The notes under the pieces: model-generated
Database searches by the model: none
Told to the model about the DNA's origin: nothing
The model's input: only the letters and a program-made list of their open reading frames with translations
Part shown: positions 25,432 through 35,953 of the stretch, one piece after another
How the letters are laid out: every line of letters begins with the position of its first letter
How positions within the stretch are numbered: the stretch's first letter is position 1
Translations under genes and position numbers: made by a program
Assembly (NCBI GenBank): GCA_001910725.1
Contig: MJGA01000005.1
Span: 1,550,001-1,614,000 of the forward strand
Direction of reading: 5' to 3'
DNA: 64,000 bases
Source of the DNA: Phanerodontia chrysosporium
Lineage: Eukaryota > Basidiomycota > Agaricomycetes > Polyporales > Phanerochaetaceae

Positions 25432-25692
25432 ATGCAAGGGCACGACGGAGGAAGAATGAAGGATCATGCTGATGACGTCGATGCGCTGCTGGTCTTTGTA
25501 AGTGCCTTTCCCTGTGCATCCTCCGGGTGACGTGTGCAGAATAGCACGATACCAGGCTGGCCTGTTTTCTGCGGTCCTCTCTGCTTTCCTTGTCGTCACC
25601 TTTACTCTCCTACAAAGCGATAACTCCCAGACAACTGTTGCACTACTCACGCGCATTACCATGCAACTGGACAACATACTTGACCCACAACA
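25432..25692 (+). pseudogene. 5' fragment of a DUF6535 membrane-protein gene
   Basis: Two exons, 25432-25497 (MKDHADDVDALLVF at its end) and 25556 onward (AGLFSAVLSAFLVVTFTLLQ), reproduce the N-terminal half of the DUF6535 domain: the D-x-LLVFAGLFSAVL helix and the first transmembrane segment, then LLTRITMQLDNILDPQ. The matching second half (WVNSLWFVSLVLSLSAAFFG) starts only at 33758. The gene is therefore split by the Helitron-like element. The coding frame may extend a few codons upstream of 25432. Confidence 0.8.
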
Positions 25693-25721
25693 TCAGGCCC
25701 TCCAGCCACGTGTCTGGCAAG

Positions 25722-25739
25722 GCCGGCGTTACCGCCGGC
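25722..25739. repeat. 7-bp all-GC hairpin near the element end
   Basis: GCCGGCG-TTAC-CGCCGGC is a perfect stem of seven G/C pairs with a four-base loop. It sits between the putative CTGA terminus and the inverted repeat, as the subterminal hairpin of a Helitron 3' end would, although the 29-nt distance to the terminus is longer than usual. Confidence 0.75.
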
Positions 25740-25743
25740 GGAA

Positions 25744-25756
25744 ACCTTGCTTGTGC
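25744..25756 (+). repeat. Left copy of 13-bp inverted repeat
   Basis: ACCTTGCTTGTGC is exactly the reverse complement of 33743-33755. The match stops abruptly on both sides. Confidence 0.85.
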
Positions 25757-25835
25757 GATTTGTATGCGAATCTCTACGTTTGATTACTTATCTTCGAGCG
25801 TACATAAACAACAGATAATATTGAAGCTCTACAAT

Positions 25836-26924
25836 CTACGTGCGACGTGATTTTTTGGTCGGAGACTCGACAGGGTTAGTAAGGCTGAAGCGTTTGAGCT
25901 TCGTTCTCGGTGGACTGCCCGCAGCTCGAGGGGGCGGTGGAATTAGAACCGATATATTGACGACGTCGGCAGAGTATGAGTCAGTTTCGGGCTTCGCGGG
26001 TTGATCCTTCGGCTTGCCAATGGACCAGTGGCTGAGGGTGAACCGTACGACGACGAGTGCTTCGCGCAGTTGTGCTTCATAGTCGCAAGGTCGTATGAGC
26101 TGACCGTCGGTGTCGAACGCGGGGATCGGGTTCGCACGGTGCGTATTCTTCATCTCTTCCAGCTCTTTTGTGATGTCGTCGTTGTCTCTTGGCCAGCCTT
26201 CGAGTGTGAATTCGAATGGTATAGCATCTGGGTGTACATTAGAGACGAGGCATCGATTGCGTATCATAATAATAGTCTTACCTTCCTCGGGGACTTCGCC
26301 GTTGTCATTGGTGGGGTCACTTTTTGGCTTCGGCTGGAAAGAATGAGATGCCATGATCTCAAAAGGTACGAAGAATTTGCTTACCTCCCATGGGTGATGC
26401 TTGAACTTGACACGCAAGTTTGCATCGACGTTGAGATTTTCACCAGTAAGTTCCTTGTCAAATATGCCGTTTACGGCCGTCCATCCCGGTGTGCGCTTGC
26501 TTTCTACAAGCTTCAGCATGTTCGACATGAAGTGCTCGAAATCACCTGAAGACTTGAAGACGGCAGGTTCGGGAGGGTCCGCCAAGGCGGAGAGCTTGAG
26601 GTCCTTGAGTTTTTTGGTGAAGCGGTCGTTCTTGTCCCAGCGCGCGTTCGCTTGCATGCGGAAGTTCGTGCCCGAAAGTTTCACGACCATGCTGAAGATC
26701 TGGGCATCGGGGAGCTCGGGGCGTTGGTGTTTCTTGGGGTCATTATTGTAGGCTTCTAGTGCTTTGGCGTAGGCCTCTGCGTCTGCGGCTGAAGTTGCGA
26801 AGTCGCGGTTCCTGTCTCTGACCCAGCCTACACGCAATTGTAGGTTGTTGAGAGGTTGGCCGAGGTAGAGGGAGTCAGGGTCGTGGAGGAGGTCCTTGCG
26901 GGTTGCAGAAAGGTTGACAGACAT
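25836..26924 (-). CDS. Unknown protein carried inside the Helitron-like element
   Basis: The frame starting MSVNLSATRKDLLHDPD is open to 25836 but contains two clear in-frame introns, 26334-26384 (51 nt) and 26228-26281 (54 nt). The spliced protein is about 327 aa. It has no signal peptide or membrane helix, many charged residues, and a basic Pro/Ser-rich tail (SPPRTKLKRF, PTKKSRR) suggesting nuclear location. I recognise no domain. It is divergent from the Rep-helicase gene, about 170 bp apart, and the frame is undamaged. It may be a captured host gene or an accessory gene of the element. An upstream ATG at 26975 is less likely. Confidence 0.7.
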   Translation of the reverse strand: MSVNLSATRKDLLHDPDSLYLGQPLNNLQLRVGWVRDRNRDFATSAADAEAYAKALEAYNNDPKKHQRPELPDAQIFSMVVKLSGTNFRMQANARWDKNDRFTKKLKDLKLSALADPPEPAVFKSSGDFEHFMSNMLKLVESKRTPGWTAVNGIFDKELTGENLNVDANLRVKFKHHPWEVSKFFVPFEIMASHSFQPKPKSDPTNDNGEVPEEGKTIIMIRNRCLVSNVHPDAIPFEFTLEGWPRDNDDITKELEEMKNTHRANPIPAFDTDGQLIRPCDYEAQLREALVVVRFTLSHWSIGKPKDQPAKPETDSYSADVVNISVLIPPPPRAAGSPPRTKLKRFSLTNPVESPTKKSRRT

Positions 26925-27095
26925 GACAGGTAAGTTGGTGGGGTGTGGTACGGGATTGAAGCATACGGACTTCACCTTTTGTTGCCGTAGTAGGGTTGTG
27001 TGTCATTTTCGGGAATGTGGTCGAAAATGCAGGAAATTGTCAGGATAAATGGTGGATGCGTCATGACGCGGCAGGACTGTGGTGGAGCGTGAGCC

Positions 27096-30000
27096 ATGGT
27101 GTTCGACGTTCGTGTATCGCGCGACTCAACTGCATGTCTTGACCTCTTGCTTGCTTTCCTCGACCTGCGTGGAATGACTTCATTAATCCTTGAACTACGA
27201 AAGCTCACCGTCAATGAAATACTTGAAGCAGCTCGCCAGAGCGGCATCGAAGTCCCCCGTGCCCATCAGTCACCGAAAGAGAAGCTCATTTCTTGGCTGT
27301 CCTTGCAGTGTTCACCTCGCTTGGAAGATATTGTTCAGAGCATTGTCACGGAGCGGTTTGCCAGAAGGAATGAACGACAACGGGAGAAACGACGACGAAG
27401 GGCGGAGGAGCAGAGGCGGAGGCGACAAGCGCGTCGATTGGAGGAACACCGTCGAGCTGAGGCGCCTGCTCGGGACATTTCAAAGTACCTGGACCTTCCT
27501 GACACGCATCGACTTCACGACTGCTACGCTGCTTATTATCATGCTACGTCAAATGCAGCATTTCGACAACTCGTATGCGCTGTATGTGCCCGAGAACTGG
27601 GTGTCCGCGAGAGTCAGATCAAGATCCTCCCATTACAGCATCTTCCTCACCGTGAACGTCTCGTTCCTCGGTCTCCTCATCGTGAACATACACTTTTTGA
27701 GGGAGCACTCCTAGAGCCTCGTGGTGTTGTGACTCAGGATGAAGGTGTCGTTGTCCAAGTATGCCGTGAGTGCCTTCAAAGTCTCGAGGCATCCGGTGAT
27801 AATCCCCCTGCAATGTCACTTGCCAATGACATGTGGATCGGACCTGTCCCTTGGGAGCTCGAAGTTCTCACTCTACCGGAACAGATGCTCATTGCGCTGC
27901 TCTATCCCGCGTCTATGTCTTCAAGCTATATCCTCGGGGCCGTAAGGTCGGACCTGACGGGACTGCAGAATCTCTTCAGCGTGGGATGAAGGGCACGGTG
28001 AGCACCTACTCGTTGGATCCTCAGGGCATCGCCTCTATGCTAGAAGGCCGTCTGATGCCTCGCCCTCCTGCAATTCTGTCCGCAGTGCTATCTATCACCT
28101 TCATTGGACGCCGAAAACTGGACGCGAAGTACTGGTTGCAGCACAGCTTCCGAGTTCGTCGTGATGTGGTGCGCCGCGCACTTGTCTGGCTGAAGCAAAA
28201 CAATCCGAAGTATTACGGCGACATACAGGTCGACGAGCAGCGGTTGGCTTCGTTACCAGAAGATGACGTACCGATTGAAGTTGAAGCTATCGTCCGACAA
28301 AACATGGATGACGGCCTAGTCGACCAGGAAAGTGAAGGCTATGTGCCTGAAGACGACGACGACAACGCCGATTTGTCAGGTAAGTTAGGAGTGAATTATT
28401 AACTCTTGCGTACTCAATGCCTGTAAGATATCGAGGGCGATGGGCCGGAGGACCAGCACATGTCGACGGTATCACATGGTGAACATAATAGGGACTCGAT
28501 AACGGCGGCTGCTGCCAGTCTGACAGACAACGTCTCTGCTGGAGACAGAGGTAAGCTGATATTCCTATGCATATTCCGGTCTGCATCTCTCGGCTGATAC
28601 ATATGATCTGTAGATCCTGGAGTGATACCTCTTCATATTTCCGGTGGTGTCGACACAGATGGGACGGAGCTGAACGCAACAGAACTCATGCGCTGGGGTC
28701 TCGCAAACTTATGGGATGATAGCCATGAGGGCGGTTATGCTATCCGTTATGGTGCGCAGCCAGTCAGTGACTATGGGCCCAGTCGTCATGCTCGCTACCT
28801 TGCTGCTAGGCACTGGTCTGGGCCGAGATCTAATCCAGAAGGACCGCATGGTGTTGCGCCATCTAGGAATGATGACGATTCGCCCGAAGCTGACAGCAAG
28901 AACTTCTTCGAGATGGCTTTCCCATGTCTCTTTCCATATGGATGTGGGGGTATTGAAGCCCAGCGGCGTGTCGAAGTTGACTTCATAGAGCATGTGCGAT
29001 GGTGTCTGCAATATCATGATCGTCGCTTTCGCAGAGACGAGCGGTTTCCATTTGTCACGTTCGGGATCCAGCAACGTCGGGAAGTCCTTGGTTCAGCACG
29101 TCTGCAGATGCGTCGAAGAGATTTCAGCCGGGCAGCTGAACTGATATCTTCAATCACTGTGGAACACATGCGAGAGGCTGAACGTGAAGAAGCTGCAGGT
29201 CTCCCCATCTCAAACCCCGCCATCCGAATGCTACAACGGCATGTTCATGCGACAGCTCGCCGAGTGCAAGGGTCTGATTCCTCACGAACGTGCCTTCGGA
29301 GTCAAATATGGTCGACAAATGCTCTGTTAGGTCCTGCGAGTGTTTGGCTCACAATCAACTTGTCTGATCTCCATGAGCCGAGCATGCAAGTGCTCGCAGG
29401 AGAAGAGATAGATCTCGACAACTTCTGTGCAGCTGCTGGTCCGGATGCTCAGCAACGAGCGAGGAATGTAGCTGCTGATCCATATGCCGCTGCGAAGTAC
29501 TTTCATCTTACAATCCGTGCGATTCTGGAGGCTCTATTCCAAGTGAAGGTCACGCCATTCCGTGTGCTCTCGGGTATGGGTGCCATCGGTGAAATTGCAG
29601 CATACTTCGGGACGGTGGAATCGCAGAATCGTGGCTCCTTACATCTACATATACTCATCTGGCTCAAGAACACACCATCTCCAGACGAATTAGTTGAATA
29701 CCTCAAGTCTGACGACTTTCGTAAGAAGGTCCTAGCCTTCATACGTGCCAACATACGGGCCTATCTACCGGGCCTTGAATCTGTCGAATCCGTGAAAAAC
29801 ATACCAAAGAGTAAAGCAGTTGCATACAGCCGTCCCCCAAAACCTGGCTCTGTAAACTATGAGGAACAGCTACGAGAGATCGAGCTACGCGTCGCGCGGA
29901 CCGAACAAGTCCACAAATGTAAGCCTCGCCGCTGCCAGTTCCCAAATAAGCATGGGCGTATTGTATGCAAGCGGAGAGCACCGTTTCCATGTGCCTTGGA

Positions 30001-33000
30001 CGACTACGTGAACGAGGATGGGGAGTGGGGCCCAAAACGGCTGTACGGAATGGTCAACGCATGGAATCCTGCGATCACAGTGAACTGTCGGTGCAACAAT
30101 GACATCAAATTCTTGACGAGCGGCCGGGAGACTCGTAACATCACCTTCTACATCACGAGCTACACGGCGAAGAAGCAAGGGAAGGCATACAATTTGTCTG
30201 CAGTACTCAGTCGTGGATTTGTATACCACCAGGAGCATCCGAACCCGGCATACATCGGTAGCCTGCAGGAAAATCAGCGTTTATTACTGAGCCGACTAGT
30301 TAATAGCATCAATCGCGAACAGGAGATAGCGGCACCGATGGTCATATCATATCTCATGGGCTGGGGCGACACGTATCGGTCGCACTCGTATACGCCAGTG
30401 TATTGGTCCTCTTTCGTGAGAGAGTTGATCCAAACGTGCGGGAATCTCCGCTCTGGCACTTCGGAGACTATTACTCGAGATGAACTGCATGAGGATGGCT
30501 TTGTAAGGTTTGCTTTAACTCGGACCTAAAGATGTACTGACCTTGGTGTCACATAGGATGATACAGGAGAGGCAGTGACCGCTGACATGACATCACATGG
30601 CGAAGTCTTCGAGAAGAGCCAGGTGACGGACTACCGTTGCCGGGGTCCTGAGCTGGAAAACATGTCAGTGCTCGATTTCTTCACGCACACATATGAAGAA
30701 GATATACGGAAGCGGCGGCGACCCTCACGTGCGGAATCAGAGAACATAGACCATGACAGCAATGCTGAAGACACCGACTCCGAAACCGACGGGGAAATGT
30801 CGCACCCTATGATTAGATGTGGACGTCGTCGTCATCTTCGGTCACGGTATTTGTCTAGCCATCCTAAAGCTGATGTTAAGCAGCGGGTCTTGCGAAGATC
30901 AGGTCATCGCAACCTGCCAAACTTTGTTGGTCAGTGGTTCCCGTCACGCAGTGATCCAATGACGTACCCGTTCTATTGCGCCTCGATGCTCATGCTCCTG
31001 AAGCCATGGCGAAATCTTGCAGAGGACCTTAAATCAAGCAGTCGTACATGGGCAGAAGAATTTACATTGTTCATGGAGCATGCCTCTGAAGATATACAGC
31101 GAATCGTGGCCGGACTTGAATACTACCATGACTGTCGAGTAGCGGCTAGGGCATCCCGTGACACCGATGAAGCTCCTGAAGATGACTTCGATGCGGCAGT
31201 GCAGGAACACTTATCTCGACAGCAACATGATATCGAAGACCCAGAATTGGGCGAGATCATTGCATCAGGAAACACAGGCATGTCAGAAGAAGGGTTGCAG
31301 GATTTCATAAGCTCTCAGACGACACACCGTGATCAGATATACGCTCGGATCGCCATACAGTGTGGTCGAGACGCCGGCATATTCCGCGATGTCGAGAACG
31401 AGTGGAATATCAACGAAGATCGTGCAAGAACAGCGCGCCCAGGCAATTTCGAGCAACTGTACGAGTGGATGCAACAAATGGCTCGTGATGTGGAACAGCA
31501 GAACACTCAAGGACTCACTATTGGAGGACCGGCGACTGGCGACGAGGCACTGGATCAAAGACCAAGCGTGACGCAAGTCCATTGTAGCGGATACAACGAC
31601 GACGACGAGGGTAGTAGCTCGGACGAAGACGACTTCCCTGATGTTATCCACCTTGCTCCGCCTGGAAGAGGGGATGGACTTATGTTCGCCAATCCTGGGG
31701 AGCTGCGAGACGATCAGTTCCGAGCATATGACATTATACGATGGCACTTGCAGCATACCGTGGCAGGTCGAGAGCCTCCTCCGTTACGGATGATTCTGTA
31801 TGGCGAAGGCGGAACTGGCAAGTCAAAAGTCATCCAAACGGTGACAGAAGAATTTCATCGCCTGGGTGTAGCGTATATGCTCGTCAAGAGTGCGTATACA
31901 GGGGTGGCAGCTTCACTTATAGACGGGAAGACTACACATACCATCGGCGCGCTTAGTGTCAAGGACCCGAGTCGTTTGACAGAACCGCAACGGGCTGTTC
32001 TTCAGATGTTTTGGCGAACAAAGCGGTATCTCGTCCTAGACGAGTATGGCATGCTGGGAAAGACCTGGCTTCGGCTATTATCAAGGAACATAAGCATCGG
32101 CAAACAAGATTCGGAAGGCTACATACCTGATGAAGCTTTCGGCGGAATGAACGTCATCCTCTGTGGAGATCTTCATCAGTTCCCCCCTGTTGCTCGTCCG
32201 AAGAGCGATTACCTCTATTTCCCAACAGCGGAGGCACATGACACGGTCGACGAAAAGCTGGGAAGGGAGATCTACGAGCAGTTTGAACATGTGGTCATAT
32301 TAAAAGAGCAGATACGGGTTATCGACCCTGAGTGGCGGGATTTCCTGGTTCATCTGCGTCGCGGCGAGGTCCAACAACACCACATAAGGATGCTGAAGTC
32401 GCTCATTCTCGATCCGCGCCACAATGACGTGGACTTCGACGACCCGACATGGCGAATGCTGTCCTTGTCACGCCACGACATGCCGTACGTCAGCAGTGGA
32501 ACGAGCTTGCTGCACGCAAGGCATGCAAGCGTGGAGGTCATCAGCTCTTCATATGTCCTGCGGAGGACACAGTCGTTACTCGTGGATGTGCCCCGAGACC
32601 GCCCACTCTAGCTGAAAAGTACGCAATCGCCGCCAGGATGAAGTCAGAACAGAAACGCAGACGCAAAGACTTGCCTTGGCATGTGGAGCTCGCGAAGGGA
32701 ATGAAAGTCTTGGTGACTACCAACATCGAGACCGATCTCGATGTCACAAACGGAGCACGCGGCGAAATCGTCGACATTATCTTACACCCCAATGAGCCCC
32801 CGATTCCGGATACCAGCATTGTTCGTTTGAAGTACTTACCTGCGTACATTTTGGTGCGCATGGAACGAACGCGCGCTTCAAGACTTGCGACCTTAGACGA
32901 AGGAGTTATACCGGTGGTACCTATCGAGATGTCAATGCGTATTCGGTTGCAACGCAGCGGACGTACCATTCACCGGACCGTCAGACGAAGGCAATTTCCT

Positions 33001-33327
33001 GTCACCGCTGCGTACGCGTACACAGATTACCGTGCGCAGGGACAAACGATAGGACATGTCATCGTCGATATTGCCAAGCCACCGACGGGGACTCTGTCAC
33101 TGTTCAACCTGTATGTCGCGCTGTCGAGAAGTTCCGGAAGGCAAACAATTCGGCTTCTCCGGGATTTCGATGCTCGCCTGTTCAGACAGAACCACGACGC
33201 TGAGTTACTACTTGAAGATGAACGACTGGAGCGCCTAAACGAGCGTACCAGGCAATGGTGGATCCAAACGGGGGGTGAAGAGAGAATGCGCGCTGCGCGT
33301 GCGCAGAGCCAGGGGACTGAGAGGTGA
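27096..33327 (+). CDS. Helitron Rep-helicase transposase (two apparent frameshifts)
   Basis: Order of parts: a basic coiled N-terminus; a DUF6570-like block (CAVCARELGV, SLANDMWIG, LTLPEQMLIALLYP); the Rep domain with FPCLFPYGCGG, the HUH motif in NRGSLHLHILIW (about 29630) and a Tyr pair in FYITSYTAKK (about 30145); then a Pif1-type helicase with Walker A GEGGTGKS (about 31805), Walker B LVLDEYGM, CGDLHQFPPV, and C-terminal YRAQGQTIGHVIVD and YVALSRS. Introns lie near 28380-28425, 28552-28613 and 30503-30555. The frame slips by one base at 27906-27908 (LLYP to RVYVFKLYP) and at 32443-32445 (DDP to MANAVLVTPRH). Both are CCC runs, so they may be sequencing errors. The element could be autonomous if they are. 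Confidence 0.9.
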
Positions 33328-33742
33328 GGACGGTCTGCTTACAAGTTCATTTTAGACAGCGAAGCTGATCAGGTTGCACAATAGTGACGTTTCATAGATG
33401 ATTGAAGGGTCTTATATTGGAGGAAATGGACTAATACATGCTACGGCGAGGTAGCGAAGAGATAGTGTCAATAAAATCAGAGACAGTGTGGCATGCCTAC
33501 CAAAGGTCTATACCGGTAACATACACCGATTTCTGACGCAAGTATCGGAGAAGGTATCGGGAGACGAACGGGGGCCGTACAAGCCAGAACGAGAAGCTAG
33601 AAATGACGAGCAAGCGTGGTGAGAAGGGCAGGATATCGAGGGCGGAGGAAGGGAACGGTCACCTTCTGCAAAAGGGAATCAGATCACGGCATTTGCCGGT
33701 AGGACGAAAACGAGCTTCAATTATGGGGGTCCTAGAGACCTT
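33328..33742. other. Element sequence downstream of the transposase gene
   Basis: About 415 bp between the Rep-helicase stop and the right inverted repeat. A 73-codon frame at 33603 has no recognisable content. I see no hairpin comparable to that at the left end. Confidence 0.45.
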
Positions 33743-33755
33743 GCACAAGCAAGGT
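33743..33755 (-). repeat. Right copy of 13-bp inverted repeat
   Basis: GCACAAGCAAGGT, two bases inside the inferred right boundary of the element. The host DUF6535 frame resumes at 33758. Confidence 0.85.
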
Positions 33756-33757
33756 GA

Positions 33758-35953
33758 TTACCGGACGCCAGCTCTTTTAGGCCGACGACCGCTTCCCTCT
33801 GGGTCAATTCGCTCTGGTTTGTGAGCCTCGTTCTTAGTCTCTCAGCGGCGTTCTTTGGAATACTAGTCAAGCAATGGATACGCGAGTATATGCGATGGAA
33901 TTCCCCCTTGGCCGACCCGAAAGAGAATGTTCTTGTCCGGCAAATTCGCTTCGAGGCCTGGCAGGACTGGAGCGTCGACACTTCTATCCTGTATATCCCC
34001 GTCCTACTTGAGCTTTCTCTTGTGCTTTTCTTCGCGGGCCTTGAAGCACTGCTATGGAGTGTTGATACCACAGTTGCCGTCGTAATCACGGTATTCGTGT
34101 CACTGTTCTTTGGATGCGCTACTGCGGCCACCCTTCTTCCACTTTTCATGAGACGATGTTCCTATAAGTCCCCGACTTCGTATGGTATTCTCCTTCTCTA
34201 CCACCTCGGAAAGCGCTATATTGGCTCTTTTGTCACCCTCGTCAAAAAGGTCACCCGGATGAGACCCTCGACAAGCTGGGAAGACGATGCTTGTGGGTCA
34301 CGCGCAACATTGCAAAATGTCCAGCTGGACTGGAGGCTTAGAGATATACAGGACAGCACCCTACGATCGCTGAGAGATTCTACCGGCATGTCCAAGGACG
34401 CCAGCGTTGTTTTCACGAATGAGCTGCAAGTGCACCTGACAGGCAGCGGGTATAACATTCAAGACGCACTCCTGGAGATGGGAAAGTCAGAAATACTCCT
34501 GCATGCCCTTTCCTGGGTAGCTCAGGCTTCGCAGGAGAAACGTGTACTGGCCAACGTCGCAACCAGCGCCGAGAATCTTCATGCCACGGACCTACCGTAC
34601 GACATCCGCTACCTCTCCACCGTGCACATTCTCTCCAACCGTCTTGGCGACGAGGGTGCGTATAGCCGCGGTGCATCCTCCGATGCCGGGTGGCTTCCCG
34701 CCGTCCCGGAGTACGCGCTGCCACAGCTCGACGGCACGATGCACACGCTCCTCTCGGTGCTCCGGCAGTGCTACCACGCGCCCGAGACACGAGGCCGCAT
34801 ACAGGAAGACGAGTTGCGAGCGGCGCCGCAGGAGGGCTTCGGCTTCCTCGAGCGCACCTGGCACGCGAAGCACGACTGGTTCTGTGCGGCGCGCGAGCTG
34901 CCCGTGTTCGTGCGGCTCCTCACTGGCGGCGTGCAGGGCACCGTGCGCGAGCTCGTGCGGCTCACTCGCCGCCGCGCGCCGCGCGCAGAGCCCGTCGCCA
35001 TCGGTGCGCGCGCGATGGGCCTCCTCTGCGCGTTCCATCGCCTCGTCCGCGCTGCACAGCTGCGCTGGCCGGAGCGCCAGGCTGAGCTCCTGGCGGACGC
35101 GCTCGCGCCGCTCGTGGACAGCTATAACGCGATCGTTGGAGACGTGCAGGCGGACCGCATTGACGAGCTGTGGTGCCCCGGGCTGCGGACGTCACTCCTT
35201 GCGACGATATGCTCGTTTGGTAAGGTCCGCTGTGACGCCGACGGGATGCTTGTACGAGGTGTGCCCTTTCCATGATCCGGCGGTTCCTCGAGGCGACTGA
35301 CACCATGCATCCAAGACCGCAGCTCGTCCTCCGAGGCCTCCGCCGCCAGCATCGCTGCCGCAAACTTGGTCGTCAGCTATCGGGACGCCACAGCCGGAAA
35401 GCCCTACGGGCGCGAGGATTGCTCCTGCCTCGTCGCCATCACGAACTCGTTTCTCAGCACGCTCGTCTCGGTGAACGTCGCATCGGATGCCGAGAACGAC
35501 TGGCAGAACGTGCATGTGACCCCCGACCGCATGCAGGCCGTCGTGGACACGATGATCGCCGTCGCGCAGACCGCGCTCGAGCGCGGGTACACCAACTGTG
35601 GAAGCTACACGAGGCTGCCGTGGCTCTCGGCGTTCACGTTGCGCAGCTTCTGGCTCATTGCGCCGCGGCAGCTCGGACAGCTCATCGACATTCTGGAACA
35701 GTGCGACGCGCAAGGGCTACTGACGCAGGAGGTTACGACGCGCCTTGCGCATGCGCGGGGCGTGGTGGCATATTTCGAAAACGATCCCGGAACGGTCTGG
35801 GAGAAAGGTGCCGCCCGTGAGTTGCAAAATTCGACACCTCTGAGGCCTAGAGCTGCAACTGCAGACGATTATCTTGGAACGTTAACATTCCCTCCAACTT
35901 CAGACCATGAGTCACCAATACTTCTCGGACAGTCAAGCACTCTGAATAACTGA
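33758..35953 (+). pseudogene. 3' part of the split DUF6535 membrane-protein gene
   Basis: From 33758 the frame reads LPDASSFRPTTASLWVNSLWF, then VSLVLSLSAAFFGILVKQW and further hydrophobic helices (LYIPVLLELSLVLFFAGLEALLW and VAVVITVFVSLFFG). This is the second half of the DUF6535 domain. A long soluble C-terminal region follows to 35953, interrupted by one intron (35259-35315) that joins GMLVR to SSSSEASAAS. This part is intact for about 710 codons. It has no start codon or N-terminal helix of its own because those lie 8 kb upstream. A stop in the same frame sits just inside the element (33755-33757). DUF6535 proteins are abundant in Agaricomycetes and have no known function. Confidence 0.8.

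What the first reader, a model, noticed from the sequence alone, without database searches (positions are those of the whole stretch)
25693..33757. An 8-kb Helitron-like element splits a DUF6535 gene into two far-apart halves
Exons coding the first half of a DUF6535 domain (DALLVF, AGLFSAVLSAF, LLTRITMQLDN) end near 25692, and the frame resumes at 33758 with LPDASSFRPTTASLWVNSLWF. In between lie a Rep-helicase gene and one other gene. On the minus strand the insert begins TC after A and ends CTGA before T, as Helitrons do. The rejoined host site would read ...CCACAACA^TTACCGG..., one base out of frame, so either the gene was already broken or a base is missing. This fixes both ends of a single insertion from sequence alone.
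Basis: partly seen in the sequence, partly recalled or inferred. Interest (0 to 1): 0.75.

Follow-up and report, generated by a model that had tools for sequence, protein, structure and literature searches.

The report
Helitron2 transposon splitting a DUF6535 gene
An 8-kilobase rolling-circle transposon of the known Helitron2 type sits inside the coding part of a fungal gene of unknown function, and its left edge most likely lies 16 bases further in than first proposed, which lets the two gene halves fit together in frame.

Summary
The split gene is real. The left piece (to 25690) matches DUF6535 positions 30-68 and the right piece (from 33758) positions 79-177. Of 29 other DUF6535 loci examined, 26 show both halves, 12-174 nt apart; 23 of those 26 read through in one frame. 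Between the halves lie a Rep-helicase gene (+) and a second gene (-).

The insert does not look like a canonical TC...CTRR Helitron. Its ends carry a 13-bp asymmetric inverted repeat and a hairpin at each end, the published hallmarks of Helitron2, with RepHel in reverse. A sister element (C57) and short copies in the same genome share the layout; one short copy has an empty site showing insertion at A|T without duplication. By the family's layout the left end is 25709, not 25693: element 25709-33757, 8,049 bp.

No empty allele of this very site is held, so the left end is inferred. RepHel has two frame breaks against its sister. The second gene is a conserved passenger; a single-strand-DNA-binding role is only weakly hinted. 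New member of a known kind.

The parts
25471..25497 (+). host DUF6535 gene, end of an upstream exon (DDVDALLVF), followed by a GT-AG intron 25498-25555
   Evidence: letters; relative P0009 has DDVDTLLVF...AGLFSAVLS
25556..25708 (+). host DUF6535 gene, left half of the split exon (AGLFSAVLSAF...LDNILDPQHQALQP)
   Evidence: PF20153 positions 30-68, E 1.5e-8 on 25502-25690; end at 25708 inferred
25709..33757 (-). Helitron2-type element, 8,049 bp; 5' end at 33757, 3' end at 25709; host A|T on either side
   Evidence: end layout shared with C57, C53, C54, C58, C60; empty site of the C58 copy
33738..33755 (-). 5' hairpin ACCTTGC-TTGT-GCAAGGT, 2 nt from the 5' end; holds the 5' inverted repeat (33743-33755)
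   Evidence: 6 of 200 shuffles fold at least as well
25744..25756 (-). 3' inverted repeat GCACAAGCAAGGT, exact inverse of 13 bases of the 5' end
25722..25739 (-). 3' hairpin GCCGGCG-GTAA-CGCCGGC, 13 nt from the proposed 3' end (8 nt if the outer GCAAG/CTTGC pairs are counted)
   Evidence: 8 of 200 shuffles fold at least as well
25836..26924 (-). passenger gene P0004 with two GT-AG introns (26334-26384 and 26228-26281); no known domain
   Evidence: relative in the same place on C57; P0067 lacks exactly the two intron stretches
27096..33327 (+). RepHel gene with DUF6570, Helitron_like_N (28994-29659), PIF1 (31790-32197) and a weak UvrD_C_2 match (33010-33135, below cut-off); two net frame changes against C57 near 27907 and 32450
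33758..35275 (+). host DUF6535 gene, right half (LPDASSFRPTT...), open for 505 aa; homology goes on in 35276-35953, probably after an intron
   Evidence: PF20153 positions 79-177, E 4.7e-29; P0007 continues past this point

Best explanation
A Helitron2-type rolling-circle transposon of 8,049 bp (25709-33757) inserted between A and T inside a coding exon of a DUF6535 gene, without a target duplication. Read on the minus strand it begins TCACCTTGCTTGTGC with a 5' hairpin and ends with the matching internal repeat, a GC-rich hairpin and ...GACACG. Its RepHel gene runs the other way, a reversal already described for some Helitron2 elements. Shown: the two gene halves, the inverted repeat, the hairpins, the sister copies, and A|T insertion without duplication for one sister copy. 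Inferred: the exact left base at this site, and the mechanism (RepHel nicks at the 5' end, one strand is peeled off, replication ends at the 3' hairpin, the strand is joined into an A|T site), which is taken from what is published of Helitrons. The rejoined host reads CCA|TTA, LDNILDPQHQALQP-LPDASSFRPTT, in frame, so the gene was probably whole before the hit.
For: 13-bp inverted repeat between the ends; both window hairpins fold better than most shuffles; published Helitron2 definition fits (passages). Same layout in C57 and in short copies C53, C54, C58, C60. Empty site of the C58 copy at C13, identical letters for 60 bases either side of the join, GATCTA|TCTCTG. The join 25708|33758 is A|T and in frame. 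In the window 8 nt lie outside the full 3' hairpin, as in C57. 23 of 26 paralogues with both halves read through in one frame.
Against: No empty allele of this site is held. Alignment of the alternative joins to five relatives does not pick out 25708 and leans to shorter linkers (against P0005: 196 for a join at 25693, 187 at 25708). Two other joins are also A|T and in frame (25690 and 25720). Counting only the inner GC stem, the hairpin lies 13 nt from the end here but 8 nt in C57. The C57 hairpins are not clearly better than shuffles (39 and 16 of 200). The window's last bases (GACACG) differ from the family's (CACGAG).
Confidence: 0.72

Rival explanations
1. Canonical Helitron with the reader's ends, 25693-33757 (minus strand A|TCACC...GGCCTGA|T); the host gene was already frame-broken or a base is missing.
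For: TC start, CTGA end and A|T are all present in the letters; shorter linkers score slightly better against relatives.
Against: The join breaks the frame. The hairpin would lie 29 nt and the inverted repeat 51 nt from the end, against 29 nt for the repeat in C57 (counted). The sister copies end in CACGAG, not CTRR. Canonical Helitrons lack the 5' hairpin (passages).
Confidence: 0.13
2. A Helitron2 insertion, but with another left base, such as 25711|33758 (T|T on the plus strand, in frame), 25690|33758 (A|T, in frame) or 25708|33757 (T|T on the minus strand, as for Helentrons, out of frame).
For: 25711 leaves 10 nt before the inner hairpin stem; 25690 is A|T and in frame.
Against: T|T is contradicted for the family by the C58/C13 empty site; 25690 puts the hairpin 31 nt away.
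Confidence: 0.12
3. The 8 kb is an old intron that arose from a transposon and is spliced out.
For: None found; no RNA reads of this gene were at hand.
Against: None of the 26 paralogues with both halves has them more than 174 nt apart; the stretch has paired transposon ends at its edges.
Confidence: 0.03

Closest known systems
Helitron2 group of Bao and Jurka 2013 (PMC3627910, passages)
   Same: Two hairpins, asymmetric terminal inverted repeats (5' repeat 0-2 bp from the end, 3' repeat just upstream of the 3' hairpin), T at the 5' end, RepHel reversed in some members
   Different: 3' repeat 35 nt from the end here (29 in C57) against about 20-30 described; the Chlamydomonas elements insert after TTTT
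FoHeli elements of Fusarium oxysporum (PMC5148889, passages)
   Same: Fungal Helitron2-like ends with repeat and hairpins; RepHel reversed in FoHeli4 and 5; FoHeli3 has an extra divergent ORF upstream of the transposase with no known domain
   Different: Other end sequences and target (TNAT and T for FoHeli1 and 2); no homology test between the extra ORFs was possible
HELPO1 and HELPO2 of Pleurotus ostreatus (PMC4289320, passages)
   Same: Basidiomycete Helitrons, A|T insertion, passenger genes in HELPO1
   Different: Described with TC or TG starts and CTRR or CTTG ends; captured genes lie downstream of RepHel
TET-bearing Helitron2 of Agaricus bisporus (PMC12730594, passages)
   Same: Helitron2 in an agaricomycete with a passenger gene
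   Different: The passenger is a TET/JBP dioxygenase; its ends were not seen by me

Membership tests
[quoted passage not shown]
   13 bp, 2 bp from the 5' end
Helitron2 | Hairpins at both ends, the 5' one using the 5' repeat, the 3' one just after the 3' repeat | tested here: met
Helitron2 | 3' repeat about 20-30 bp from the 3' end | tested here: inconclusive
   35 nt if the end is 25709; 29 nt in C57 (counted)
Helitron2 | RepHel protein with Rep and PIF1-type helicase domains | tested here: met
   motifs HLH, YxxSY and the Walker motif; frame broken twice against C57
Helitron2 | RepHel groups with Helitron2 in a tree | not tested
   No reference set of named RepHel proteins was gathered
Helitron2 | No target duplication | tested here: met
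   C58 copy against its empty site; for the window itself only inferred
Helitron1 (canonical) | 5'-TC and CTRR-3' ends | tested here: not met
   TC is there; CTGA only at the out-of-frame end 25693; the sister copies start TT and end CGAG
Helitron1 (canonical) | No 5' hairpin | tested here: not met
   A 5' hairpin is present
Helitron1 (canonical) | Insertion between A and T | tested here: met
   C58/C13 empty site; A before the element in window, C54, C58, C60 but G in C53 and C57
Helentron | Endonuclease domain | tested here: not met
   None in the Pfam scan of the long ORFs of the element at E 0.1
Helentron | Insertion into TT | tested here: not met
   C58/C13 empty site reads GATCTATCTC
Enc34/T7 gp2.5-type ssDNA-binding proteins (P0004) | Sequence profile similarity | tested here: not met
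   hhalign probability 0.1 percent; no such Pfam hit at E 10
Enc34/T7 gp2.5-type ssDNA-binding proteins (P0004) | Fold similarity | tested here: inconclusive

The most novel reading that the evidence does not exclude
This fungal Helitron2 lineage carries its own helper gene, transcribed away from RepHel, whose C-terminal part is a phage-type single-strand DNA-binding protein: a further independent gain of such a helper by Helitrons, beside the RPA homologues of plant Helitrons and Drosophila Helentrons.
Probability: 0.2. Interest if true: 0.55.

Novelty: new member of a known kind. Interest (0 to 1): 0.33.

Why it matters
It shows how a misplaced transposon end can make a whole gene look already broken, and it gives a worked Helitron2 family in a basidiomycete: two long RepHel-bearing relatives, short copies, an empty site and a conserved passenger gene without a known function.

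Tried and rejected
Other copies of the window's own ends by DNA: none. An empty allele among predicted proteins: the best relative of the right half is 61% identical, so not an allele. Choosing the breakpoint by protein alignment: inconclusive. P0004 and its relatives by Pfam, PHROGs, NCBIfam and PDB sequence: nothing significant. A weak DUF3614 hit (E 0.038) was dropped: a search of the genome with that family returned one place, on C63, not the P0004 gene. AlphaFold of P0067: mean pLDDT 36.7, unusable; of the last exon alone 62.1. The viral fold library gave nothing under E 0.001, best 6e-3. The one DUF6535 paper listed was not read. The idea that P0004 might be a T7 gp2.5-type protein came from memory before the fold search.

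Full report
Setting. The window is G000:C91:1550001-1614000 of a 39-Mb genome in 145 contigs.

The split gene. The left piece reads DDVDALLVF, a GT-AG intron, then AGLFSAVLSAF...LLTRITMQLDN, and matches DUF6535 positions 30-68; the right piece begins LPDASSFRPTT and matches 79-177. A search of the genome with the right half gave 36 matches, of which 30 were cut out as loci, one being the window's own. Of the other 29 loci, both halves were found in 26 and the left half not in 3 (L043, L044, L059). The halves lie 12-174 nt apart, and 23 of the 26 read through in one frame; L042, L048 and L050 do not. So this is one gene interrupted in an exon. The right half is open for 505 aa. Its stop falls where the predicted ORFs of several relatives also end, while P0007 runs on with a sequence like window 35276-35953, so an intron there is likelier than a nonsense change (inference).

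What the insert is. On the minus strand the right edge reads TC-ACCTTGC-TTGT-GCAAGGT, a hairpin 2 nt from the end. Near the left edge lies GCACAAGCAAGGT, the exact inverse of 13 bases of that edge, then the hairpin GCCGGCG-GTAA-CGCCGGC. An inverted match of 12 bp or more arose in 2 of 5,000 random pairs of 60-mers from the window, the longest being 13. Of 200 shuffles, 6 and 8 fold at least as well as the two ends; for C57 the numbers are 16 and 39, so there the fold alone is not telling. Bao and Jurka describe this set (two hairpins, asymmetric inverted repeats, T at the 5' end, RepHel reversed in some members) as Helitron2 (PMC3627910, passages); the Fusarium FoHeli elements are similar (PMC5148889, passages).

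Relatives in the same genome. A pattern for the right-end hairpin matched six places, the reversed control none. One is the window. One is a sister element on C57 (139,790-150,301, 10,512 bp) with a RepHel stretch 54% identical over query residues 2-478, a relative of the second gene (33%) in the same divergent position, and the same end layout. Three are short copies: C53 454 bp, C58 631 bp, C60 627 bp; for C66 only the right end was recognised. A left-end pattern gave seven places and added C54 (565 bp) and C89 (right end not seen in the held stretch); the C61 match was dropped as it lacks the rest of the end; the reversed control gave one match. The base before CTCGTG is A in six of six left ends, but the pattern asked for that A, so only C53, C57, C58 and C60, found by the other end, are free evidence. 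Right ends read GGTAA in C53, C54, C57, C58, C60 and C66 and GGTGA in the window; the next base is C or T in each.

An empty site. A query of five joined flanks found, for C58, an uninterrupted copy of the same host repeat at C13:282810-282967, 99% identical over 158 bases; the 60 letters on either side of the join are identical: GATCTA|TCTCTG. So this copy inserted between A and T (or T and A, a one-base shift that cannot be resolved) without duplication. The other four joined sites had no such partner. On the minus strand the base before the element is A in the window, C54, C58 and C60 and G in C53 and C57.

The left breakpoint. By analogy a host A should stand a little outside the 3' hairpin. 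In the window 25708 fits: CCA|CGTGTCTGGCAAG-hairpin. Counting the outer GCAAG/CTTGC pairs, 8 nt remain outside the hairpin, as in C57; counting only the GC stem, 13. The rejoined host then reads LDNILDPQHQALQP-LPDASSFRPTT in frame; the nearest relative has LDNQHSTTPTVLP-LPDPSSF (P0005). Against my choice: two further joins, 25690 and 25720, are also A|T and in frame, and alignment scores of the joins to five relatives lean to shorter linkers (P0005: 193 at 25690, 196 at 25693, 187 at 25708). No allele of the site is available. I put the 25709 boundary at about seven in ten.

State of the element. RepHel holds the Rep motifs HLH and YxxSY and the helicase Walker motif, but against C57 it changes frame twice inside uninterrupted homology, after LLYP near 27907 and after DDPTW near 32450. 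These are decay or assembly errors. The sister has a stop codon and extra DNA in its RepHel. Whether either can still move is unknown. GC is 0.523 in the element against 0.545 and 0.568 in the 5-kb flanks, which says little.

Novelty. Helitron2 elements in fungi, reversed RepHel and divergent passenger ORFs (passages) and a Helitron2 in an agaricomycete (PMC12730594, passages) are in print. My searches of the library listed no paper that by title or abstract describes this element or its passenger gene. It is a new member of a known kind.

Noticed in passing
G000 C65:134143, C91:1828664, C91:1852536; C72:179842 and C81:140925 (L016-L020): Other RepHel families with open frames of 2,462 to 3,127 aa and near-identical copies (99.9-100% over 3,891 nt for the first three, 99.8% over 3,867 nt for the last two), suggesting recent spread or duplication; ends not determined.
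   Followed up: partly
L076 (C60) and L073 (C54): These short copies show many single-base losses in base runs against their siblings, which could be assembly errors or mutation.
   Followed up: no
L062/L012, C57 about 143.0-144.3 kb: The sister element carries about 1.3 kb of extra DNA inside the DUF6570 to Rep part of RepHel, 101 bases of it not fetched.
   Followed up: no
L063, C63:80798-81112: A relative of P0004 (34%), closer to a Phanerochaete carnosa protein (P0068) than to P0004; no RepHel match lies on C63.
   Followed up: partly
G000, 36 places: DUF6535 is a large family in this genome, with some near-identical pairs such as C110 and C78 at 99.4%.
   Followed up: partly
L079, C13:282810-282967: The host repeat hit by the C58 copy is itself repeated and partly inverted within L079.
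   Followed up: no
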